Source: Streptomyces umbrinus
GTDB taxonomy: Bacteria; Actinomycetota; Actinomycetes; Streptomycetales; Streptomycetaceae
Length of the DNA stretch: 64,000 bases
Assembly (NCBI RefSeq): GCF_030817415.1
Contig: NZ_JAUSZI010000002.1
Coordinates: 9,362,001-9,426,000, forward strand
Reading direction: 5' to 3'
Shown: one piece after another, positions 37,587 to 49,760 of the stretch
How positions within the stretch are numbered: position 1 is the first letter of the stretch
Layout of the letters: every line of letters begins with the position of its first letter
Position numbers and translations under genes: made by a program
The notes under the pieces: model-generated
Told to the model about the DNA's origin: nothing
What the model saw: only the letters and a program-made list of their open reading frames with translations
The model's database searches: none

Positions 37587-37689
37587 GGGGCGCGGGGCTG
37601 TATCGATTTGCGGCTCCTCCCCCACTCTCGGCTTCGCTCGAGCGGGGGGACCCCCATCGTGGGCGCGACAAGCCACAACGCGCCCGCAG
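37587..37689 (+). repeat. Stop-associated dispersed repeat, copy g, interrupted by a second element
   Basis: Plus-strand long form, starting GGGGCGCGGGGCTGTATCG and ending GGGCGCGACAAGCCACAACG with CGCCCGCAG. Its inner hairpin segment is replaced at about 37617-37657 by the small palindromic element otherwise seen three times in the HAD gene. Confidence 0.75.
37617..37657 (+). mobile_element. Small palindromic element (about 40 bp), nested copy
   Basis: CTCCCCCA, then CTCTCGGCTTCGCTCGAGC, then GGGGGGACCCCCAT. The arms CTCCCCC/GGGGGG and the inner CTCGGCTTCGCTCGAG are self-complementary. The host repeat resumes on both sides, which indicates insertion into an existing copy. No coding capacity; mobility would need help in trans and is inferred. 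Confidence 0.55.
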
Positions 37690-48927: not shown

Positions 48928-49082
48928 GCCGCGACCCTATTACGGGCCAAAAGGCCCGATGCGATCGCCCCCCCCGGGGTGCCCCGTAGGGTCGGGGGTA
49001 TGAAGATCCAAGCTGATGCCCTGCTGTTCGACAACGACGGAACGCTCGTCTCGTCCCTGGAGTCGGTGTACCGCTGCTGGAC

Positions 49083-49119
49083 CCTCCCCCAGAGCTGAAC
49101 GCCTGGGGGGACCCCCAGC
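49083..49119 (+). mobile_element. Small palindromic element, HAD copy 1 (divergent core)
   Basis: CCTCCCCCAGAGCTGAACGC followed by CTGGGGGGACCCCCAG. The outer arms match the other copies; the centre differs. It carries the stop codon that ends the HAD frame. Confidence 0.55.
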
Positions 49120-49209
49120 CGAGGAGTACGGGATCACCGCCGAGGAGTTCGCCCGGGTCGAGCTGCACGGCCGCCCCGCCGCCGAGATAGCCGCCGACCT
49201 GCTGCCCGC

Positions 49210-49255
49210 CATGGGGGTCCCCCCGCGCGAGCGAAGCCGAGCGTGGGGGAGGGTC
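49210..49255 (-). mobile_element. Small palindromic element, HAD copy 2
   Basis: ATGGGGGTCCCCCCGCGCGA followed by GCGAAGCCGAGCGTGGGGGA and GGG: the reverse complement of the nested copy at 37.6 kb. Confidence 0.65.
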
Positions 49256-49350
49256 CCCGAGGCCGTCGTACGCATCGAGCAGCTGGAGGTCGAGGACGTC
49301 GAGGGCGGTGTCCATTTGTTGCCGGGGACCCGGGCGCTCCTCGACTCCGT

Positions 49351-49398
49351 GCCCTCCCCCAACTTCTCGGCTTCGCTCGAAGCCGGGGGGACCCCCAT
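49351..49398 (+). mobile_element. Small palindromic element, HAD copy 3
   Basis: CCCTCCCCCAACTTCTCGGC followed by TTCGCTCGAAGCCGGGGGGA and CCCCCAT; same orientation as the nested copy at 37.6 kb. Confidence 0.65.
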
Positions 49399-49760
49399 CC
49401 GCTGGGCCGTCGTCACCTCCGCCACCCGGCGGCCGGCCGAGGCCCGCCTCGACGAGGCCGGTATCCGGACCAAGACCCTGATCGCTGCGGACGACATCAC
49501 GCGCGGCAAGCCCGACCCCGAGCCGTTCCTGCTCGCCGCCCGCCGGCTCGGTGTGGACCCGGCCCGCTGCGTCGTCTTCGAGGACGCGCCCGCGGGTCTG
49601 CGGGCCGGCCGCTCCGCCGGGATGACCACCGTGGCATTGACCACAACCCACCAGGCCGCCGAGCTGCACGCGGACGTCGTCGTCGGTGACCTCTCGGCCG
49701 TGTCGGCGCTGGTCACGGACGGGGGAGTGGAGATCTCCGTCGGCGACTGAGGAGTGTCCA

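What the first reader, a model, noticed from the sequence alone, without database searches (positions are those of the whole stretch)
49000..49750. One HAD phosphatase gene hit three times by the same small palindromic element
Three segments of about 37-48 bp with CTCCCCC / GGGGGGACCCCCA arms interrupt the gene at separate sites and in both orientations. The first introduces a stop and a +1 shift; the other two are in frame. Three independent hits on one 750-bp gene suggest a mobile or amplifying non-coding unit with local preference, and a gene already free of selection.
Basis: seen in the sequence. Interest (0 to 1): 0.75.

Follow-up and report, generated by a model that had tools for sequence, protein, structure and literature searches.

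The report
Tiny mobile hairpins inside Streptomyces genes
A Streptomyces enzyme gene has been hit three times by members of a family of roughly 30-45-letter DNA hairpins that is widespread in the Streptomyces family of bacteria and usually slips into genes without breaking their reading frame, although here one copy did break the gene.

Summary
The HAD-hydrolase gene (49000-49750) carries three hairpin inserts, two forward and one reverse: net +28 (TGA stop, frameshift), +36 and +39. S. phaeochromogenes, 95% identical here, lacks all three. Of 109 orthologous loci, one (S. violascens) has its own in-frame hairpin, of another arm type, at the third insert's exact site.

They belong to one family: T-CCCCCA - variable paired core - GGGGGA-CCCCCA. 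This genome has 67 exact copies. Copies occur in 297 of 392 Streptomyces genomes, in 10 of 17 sampled genera of the family, and in 0 of 287 sampled genomes of the phylum outside the genus.

Empty sites show that copies replace short targets, mostly 3-4 nt after a C, preferentially GCT (9 of 23 against 1.6% expected). A second arm type replaces GTCG after CC (3 of 4). Net lengths of the common types (27, 36, 39) are multiples of three; 26 of 29 copies in coding sequence keep frame.

Best explanation: a non-autonomous hairpin copied by an unidentified trans-acting enzyme at CGCT-like sites. The enzyme is inferred. Polymerase template switching is the main rival. Nearest known kinds are REPs and Rickettsia palindromic elements; REP's tag and transposase were not met. 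My paper searches found no description. "Gene already free of selection" is not shown.

The parts
49000..49750 (+). HAD-family hydrolase gene, broken: 751 nt against 648 nt in the intact S. phaeochromogenes orthologue
   Evidence: Pfam PF00702/PF13419 on the 3' frame; HAD-IA family over its cut-off
49085..49117 (+). insert E1: TCCCCCA - GAGCTGAACGCCT core - GGGGGGACCCCCA; replaces GCTGG after a C; net +28
49096..49098 (+). in-frame TGA inside E1; ends the product after 32 codons
   Evidence: frame from ATG 49000; E1 frame 1 has a stop
49212..49250 (-). insert E2, reverse orientation, core CGCTCGGCTTCGCTCGCG; with the T at 49211 replaces 4 nt; net +36
49355..49397 (+). insert E3, core ACTTCTCGGCTTCGCTCGAAGCC; replaces GCCGA after a C (counting the T at 49398); net +39; the same site holds an arm-type-2 copy in S. 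violascens
37618..37656 (+). fourth copy in the window (39-nt type), with flanks shared with two other copies of the genome (L179, L185)

Best explanation
E1-E3 are copies of a non-autonomous mobile hairpin element of Streptomycetaceae. Anatomy: T-CCCCCA, a variable core that pairs with itself, GGGGGA, then a CCCCCA tail; a second arm type is CC-TCCCCCA ... GGGAGGTG-CCCCCA. Shown: copies arise at new places between close species; each replaces a short target (3-4 nt in most, up to 6) right after a C, preferentially GCT, or GTCG after CC for the second arm type; the common types add 27, 36 or 39 nt net; most copies in coding DNA keep frame, in both orientations; two core pairs are kept by changes on both sides; two sites were hit separately in two lineages. 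Inferred: a trans-acting enzyme that recognises the folded single strand cuts at CGCT-like sites and inserts a copy in place of the cut bases, and insertions that break genes are mostly purged, so stop-free types with a net length divisible by three fill genes. In the HAD gene, E1 escaped that rule because 5 nt were lost rather than 3, which shifted the frame. E2 and E3 were inserted in the same recent lineage; the order is not known.
For: 67 exact copies, 0 reversed control. 297 of 392 Streptomyces genomes, 2761 matches summed; 115 of 200 genomes and 10 of 17 genera in the family; 5 of 296 in the phylum sample, all among its 9 same-genus genomes. Empty sites in S. phaeochromogenes for 24 of 26 located copies. 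Target after C: G first in 21 of 23 (background 0.41, P=6e-7), GCT in 9 of 23 (background 0.016, P=4e-11). Three nested copies in G376 sit at C^GCTC of a host element's core, with GCTC gone. Arm type 2: GTCG three times and GTTC once after CC. 26 of 29 coding copies in frame, 13 per orientation (P=5e-10 against 1/3). Core pairs 9-26 and 10-25 change on both sides in 8 of 42 sequences each; covariation score 0.121 against 0.045 +/- 0.009, 0 of 500 shuffles. Same site hit in two lineages: E3 in S. violascens and L043 in G032.
Against: No enzyme was found. Y1 transposases are not needed for copies to be present (180 of 253 genomes without Y1_Tnp have copies). Loss of target bases fits no transposase class that I can name. 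The outer arm pairs are invariant because the search pattern fixes them; two other measures (pairs with a change on both sides, 3 against 2.6 shuffled; further pair types, 7 against 7.0) do not stand out. Single-strand folding of five elements with flanks is not far beyond shuffles (z -0.2 to -1.8). Of 22 located single-copy sites, 5 have a script net not divisible by three (32, 29, 37, 40, 26; the 26 of L250 reads 27 between its nearest shared flanks). Lengths divisible by three also dominate outside genes (30 of 39 noncoding copies outside the large repeat), so frame keeping is not proof of selection in each gene.
Confidence: 0.6

Rival explanations
1. Polymerase template switching: a stalled replication or repair fork jumps through short C-rich homology to an existing hairpin, copies it and returns 3-6 nt further on. 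No dedicated enzyme; the hairpin is copied because it stalls polymerases.
For: Target loss rather than duplication; C before the replaced target, sharing C or CCC with the element's start; variable loss of 3 to 6 nt; clustering in three genes, recurrent sites and tandem or nested copies.
Against: Ends are the same in the copies read (T ... CCCCCA) and no donor flank is carried along at the sites aligned. The GCT preference (9 of 23 against 1.6%) lies in the lost bases, not in the shared ones. The return junction shares little with the element.
Confidence: 0.22
2. A REP-type element moved by a RAYT, or a minimal derivative (PATE-like) of the IS200/IS605 elements present in this genome, inserted through single-strand hairpin recognition.
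For: Imperfect palindrome of 30-43 nt with a kept mismatch and a variable paired core; IS200/IS605-type TnpA and TnpB genes in this genome; genomes with Y1_Tnp have more copies (median 6 against 2, p=4e-9, not corrected for genome size).
Against: No GTAG or CGTC tag at an end. The three Y1 proteins tested score 19-24 bits against the RAYT cut-off of 80. No complete copy in the DNA fetched around the five Y1 loci (lone CTCCCCC strings occur). 180 of 253 Y1-free genomes have copies, 33 with ten or more. IS200/IS605 insertion is not known to delete target bases (recalled).
Confidence: 0.13
3. An ordinary DDE-type MITE with terminal inverted repeats and target duplication.
For: Short, palindromic, non-autonomous, many copies, insertion differences between species.
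Against: No target duplication at any of the 23 sites read; bases are lost instead. No autonomous relative with these ends was seen in the loci read; no dedicated search for one was made.
Confidence: 0.04

Closest known systems
REP (repetitive extragenic palindromes, GTAG/CGTC super-families) with RAYT/TnpA-REP
   Same: small imperfect hairpins in many copies; a kept mismatch in the stem (E. coli REP); copies inside genes and genes hit twice are reported for REPs (PMC3733652, passages; PMC8266576, passages)
   Different: no GTAG or CGTC tag; no RAYT among the Y1 proteins tested; short target replaced; seen only in Streptomycetaceae in my samples. 'Streptomyces' and 'Actinobacteria' have 0 occurrences in the main text of PMC3733652
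Rickettsia palindromic elements (RPE)
   Same: palindromes with open frames that insert in frame into unrelated protein genes (PMC10969869 and PMC2229807, passages)
   Different: RPE are 105-146 or about 150 bp in Rickettsia; here 30-43 nt in actinobacteria, main types open in all six frames, with a readable target (C^GCT) and target loss; target duplication of RPE is marked '?' in the table of PMC2229807
IS200/IS605 family and its short derivatives
   Same: hairpins recognised as single strands; sequence-specific insertion site (recalled); members present in this genome
   Different: one hairpin only, no element arms found next to the IS copies, target bases lost
Integron attC sites
   Same: arms fixed, centre variable but paired, recognised as a folded strand (recalled)
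   Different: no integrase searched for, no cassette, target loss; an analogy only

Membership tests
REP / RAYT | GTAG or CGTC tetranucleotide at the foot of the hairpin | tested here: not met
   ends read as C^TCCCCCA and CCCCCA(N) in 23 sites; tags as named in PMC3733652
REP / RAYT | REP-associated tyrosine transposase in the genome | tested here: not met
   3 of the 5 Y1 loci of this genome tested: 19-24 bits against cut-off 80, while the IS200 model gives 140-144 against 55. The other 2 loci, and a RAYT too divergent for PF01797, are not excluded
REP / RAYT | small (20-40 bp) palindrome in many copies | tested here: met
   67 exact copies, 30-43 nt; two core pairs kept by both-sided changes
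MITE (DDE) | target site duplication | tested here: not met
   23 empty/filled pairs show loss of bases, none a duplication
Rickettsia palindromic element | in-frame insertion into protein genes | tested here: met
   26 of 29 coding copies keep frame
Rickettsia palindromic element | 105-150 bp size and Rickettsia host | tested here: not met
   30-43 nt in G000; in the samples seen only in Streptomycetaceae; no sequence comparison with RPE was run
IS200/IS605-derived element | ends shared with an IS200/IS605 copy | tested here: inconclusive
   complete element arms not found in 3.4-3.5 kb around the five Y1 loci; the IS ends themselves were not mapped
Described RNA family | match to an Rfam model at its gathering score | tested here: not met
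   0 of 7 matches in six loci reach gathering score

The most novel reading that the evidence does not exclude
A family-wide selfish hairpin that has evolved to be invisible inside proteins. The two arm types lose different numbers of target bases (3 after C; 4 after CC), yet their lengths differ so that the same cores give the same net 27 or 36 nt in both, and at the E3 site the two arm types gave the same net 39 in two species; the six frames of the common types are open; and insertion replaces a CGCT-like target, hitting some sites again in separate lineages, by a mechanism that none of the known transposase classes shows. It would be a sequence-targeted, target-replacing, frame-tuned hairpin mover.
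Probability: 0.35. Interest if true: 0.82.

Novelty: new variant of a known kind. Interest (0 to 1): 0.7.

Why it matters
Selfish palindromes that insert in frame into proteins are described chiefly from Rickettsia, and how those move is open (target duplication '?' in PMC2229807). Here a similar class is spread through a large family with tractable laboratory members, with recent copies, close sister genomes, readable target sites (C^GCT) and sites hit more than once, so its mechanism can be tested directly. It also supplies a source of 9-13-residue insertions in Streptomyces proteins and of pseudogenes that annotators can recognise.

Tried and rejected
Target duplication was looked for and not found. 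Y1 transposase as the required mover was tested across 392 genomes and rejected as a requirement, although genomes with Y1_Tnp carry more copies. Rfam gave nothing above gathering score. Eight paper searches aimed at this family, by words or by element letters, and one aimed at Rickettsia elements listed no paper on it among the titles shown; only open-licence full texts were searched, and lists were capped. I saw passages of four papers (PMC3733652, PMC10969869, PMC2229807, PMC8266576) and listings with starts of abstracts for the rest. A dead gene collecting further hits by neutrality alone was considered: at 67 copies per 12.3 Mb, three in 271 nt are expected 7e-5 times, so neutrality does not suffice and the clustering is left unexplained. 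Recovery of frame by the two hits in the ABC-transporter gene (26+34=60 nt) was considered and rejected, because a stop lies between them in the shifted frame.

Mended on checking: I had written that no orthologue carries a copy; that scan covered arm type 1 only. Searches found an arm-type-2 copy in S. violascens at the E3 site.

Rows dropped before counts: of 39 queried flank pieces, 13 had no two-sided match among the 30 fetched loci of S. phaeochromogenes, 1 (L179) was ambiguous and 1 (L182) had a diverged copy at the same place. The 23 target sites were read by hand (sites known only from G032/G087, such as L032, L045, L178, L181, L197, L254, were not counted), and the search pattern itself forces a C before the T. 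In one search, 113 of 142 copies were not called coding on both sides. In one search, 5 of 14 orthologues were given in the wrong orientation, so only 9 count there.

Full report
What is there. The window is part of a 12.3-Mb replicon of a Streptomyces genome (G000:C2:9362001-9426000; genus from the relatives found). The gene at 49000-49750 is a HAD-family hydrolase (PF00702, PF13419; HAD-IA). It carries three hairpin segments at 49085-49117, 49212-49250 (reverse) and 49355-49397. The closest orthologue found, S. phaeochromogenes NRRL B-1248 (L061, 95% identical over 644 compared columns), is intact, and against it the segments add 28, 36 and 39 nt. The first puts TGA at 49096-49098, after 32 codons, and shifts the frame; the nucleophile motif (FDNDGT, read by eye) is cut off from the rest. 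A scan of 109 orthologous loci for both arm types finds one copy: in S. violascens JCM 4424 (L078) an arm-type-2 hairpin stands at the exact site of the third insert, in the same orientation and with the same net 39 nt. Its nearest relative in the set (L127, 89%) is empty there, so this is a separate event. An earlier scan for arm type 1 alone had found none.

One family. Oriented alike, all three read C-TCCCCCA-core-GGGGGGACCCCCA. The exact pattern occurs 67 times in the genome and its reversed control 0 times. It occurs in 297 of 392 Streptomyces genomes, 115 of 200 genomes from 10 of 17 genera of the family, and 5 of 296 genomes of a phylum sample, all five among its nine same-genus members. 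A second arm type, CCTCCCCCA-core-GGGAGGTGCCCCC, has 14 matches here, overlapping ones included, and shares cores with the first. On 42 distinct 39-nt copies typed from earlier outputs, core pairs 9-26 and 10-25 each change on both sides in 8 sequences; the covariation score is 0.121 against 0.045 shuffled (0 of 500) and lower at every slide, while two cruder measures do not exceed shuffles. Folding energy alone is not remarkable (five strings, z -0.2 to -1.8).

Precise insertion sites. Flanks of G000 copies with the element left out were searched in G032 and G087 (alignments) and then in the S. phaeochromogenes genome. Of 39 queried pieces, 26 were located on both sides; 24 show an empty site, one (L182) a diverged copy at the same place, one (L179) is ambiguous. 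In 23 sites of the first arm type, including E1-E3, the element begins after a C and takes the place of a short target: the first lost base is G in 21 of 23 (0.41 expected from the flanks, P=6e-7) and the first three are GCT in 9 of 23 (0.016 expected, P=4e-11). In the four sites of the second arm type readable there, GTCG (three times) or GTTC is lost after CC. Three copies in another genome (G376) sit inside a copy of the family itself, at C^GCTC of its core, with GCTC gone; there the target follows from the family's own sequence. The base after CCCCCA is T in most 39-nt copies, also where the empty site has another base, so it probably belongs to that type.

Frame. The common types give net 27 (30-mers), 36 (39-mers) and 39 (42-mers); arm type 2 gives 27 (32-mers) and, for one 41-mer read against G087, 36. 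Of the 22 located single-copy sites with an empty counterpart, 17 have a script net divisible by three; the others are 32, 29, 37, 40 and 26 (the last, L250, reads 27 between its nearest shared flanks). The two copies in one ABC-transporter gene add 26 and 34 (sum 60). By third-position G+C of the flanks, 29 of 142 distinct copies lie in coding sequence on both sides, and 26 of these keep frame, 13 in each orientation (P=5e-10 against one in three). The 39-, 30- and 42-nt types tested have no stop in any of six frames; a 35-nt type and E1 do. Outside genes, too, 30 of 39 noncoding copies that are not in the large intergenic repeat have a length divisible by three, so the property belongs to the family and is not only the result of purging in each gene.

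Age and recurrence. Twenty-four copies plus the three in the HAD gene are absent from a relative about 5% away, so the family has moved recently. L182 is shared and diverged, so some copies are old. Two sites were hit in two lineages: the E3 site (S. violascens), and the L043 site, where G032 holds a diverged copy while G087 and S. phaeochromogenes are empty with the target bases present. Independent insertion into one site is the simplest reading of both; no formal test against random targeting was run.

Several hits in one gene. Besides the HAD gene (three), an ABC-transporter ATPase gene (L033; PF00005 in the empty orthologue) has two hits, one of each arm type, and a zinc-binding dehydrogenase gene (L203; PF00107, PF08240; both sites fall in one 361-codon frame of the empty locus) has two of the same core type in the same orientation. 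All three hold at least one frame-breaking copy, against 1 of the 14 single-hit coding copies of this genome (p=0.006; L033 itself was not among the coding-both calls). Three copies within 271 nt would be expected 7e-5 times at the genome's density. Neutral accumulation in a dead gene is therefore not enough: coupled insertion or a locally exposed target is needed, and this stays unexplained. Outside the borders the HAD gene shows 6 synonymous and 4 nonsynonymous changes in this lineage against 7 and 2 in the sister lineage by the script (p=0.63); one of the four is a silent leucine change when both steps are polarised. So it has not visibly decayed for long. My first, uncorrected count (6, 5 and 6 private changes at codon positions 1, 2, 3, against 1, 0 and 8 in the sister) had pointed the other way, but it included columns at the insert borders.

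Machinery. Y1 transposases occur in 139 of 392 genomes. Genomes with them have more copies (median 6 against 2, not corrected for genome size), but 180 of 253 without them also have copies, up to 44. The Y1 proteins of this genome that were tested (three of five loci) are IS200/IS605 transposases and fall far below the cut-off for REP-associated transposases; TnpB-type proteins sit beside the two loci examined for them, and no complete element copy lies in the DNA fetched around the five. No mover is identified, and no other enzyme family was searched for.

Reading. The best account is a non-autonomous hairpin inserted by an enzyme working in trans at CGCT-like sites, with loss of the cut bases. 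Mobility, target preference, target loss, frame keeping and pairing of the core are shown; the enzyme, the single-strand intermediate and the reason for clustering are inferred or open. Template switching by a polymerase is the main rival. Known relatives in behaviour are REPs, for which copies in genes and double hits are reported (PMC3733652, passages), and RPEs, which insert in frame (PMC10969869, PMC2229807, passages). REP's tag and transposase were tested and not met, RPE's size and host not met, and a MITE's duplication not met. The paper searches listed no description of this family (for RPE); subscription papers and preprints are not held.

Noticed in passing
L078 1701-1743 (S. violascens JCM 4424): An arm-type-2 hairpin at the exact site of E3 in the orthologous HAD gene, in frame (extra 39 nt), with a core resembling E3's; the nearest relative L127 is empty.
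   Followed up: partly
L039 1400-1850, L054 1400-1850 (G000:C2 near 3292309 and 4486471): A larger intergenic repeat (TTCGCCCCCGCCGCCCCTACC - hairpin - ATCGTC ... GCGCAGTTCCCCGCGCCCC palindrome). 26 of the 67 copies sit at its end, and three examples have the hairpin at both ends, 201-202 nt apart. Its function was not tested.
   Followed up: partly
L246, L252, L255 (G000:C2 2820979, 4833492, 6809464): Arm-type-2 hairpins in the end of an IS- or MITE-like repeat bounded by GGGCCTGTCTGACAATTC; in L246 and L252 the unit CCCCCA-core-GGGAGGTG is repeated in tandem.
   Followed up: no
G000:C2, whole replicon: Copies are rare in the outer parts of the chromosome: 2 of 67 below 1.3 Mb or above 9.5 Mb, 22 expected (P=2e-9; limits chosen after seeing the data). 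IS elements are usually said to favour the arms (recalled).
   Followed up: no
L197, L199, L163, L297, L311, L312: A recurrent composite in several genomes: 30-nt hairpin followed by AT[CT]TCGCTTCGCTC (last bases vary); the two in G000 have net +39 in coding sequence.
   Followed up: partly
window 49084-49098: E1 places CTC CCC CAG AGC TGA in frame; a +1 slip on the C-run before the hairpin would lead into the downstream frame of the gene. Whether ribosomes do this is unknown.
   Followed up: no
L227 (G032) against L043, L234, L317: The same site in a gene was hit in two lineages in the same orientation, with empty sites in two other genomes.
   Followed up: partly
G000:C2 5.7-8.0 Mb: Copies in this stretch are 2 forward and 13 reverse, against 20/13 and 10/7 in the neighbouring stretches (limits chosen after seeing the data); a replication-strand bias could be tested once oriC is placed.
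   Followed up: no
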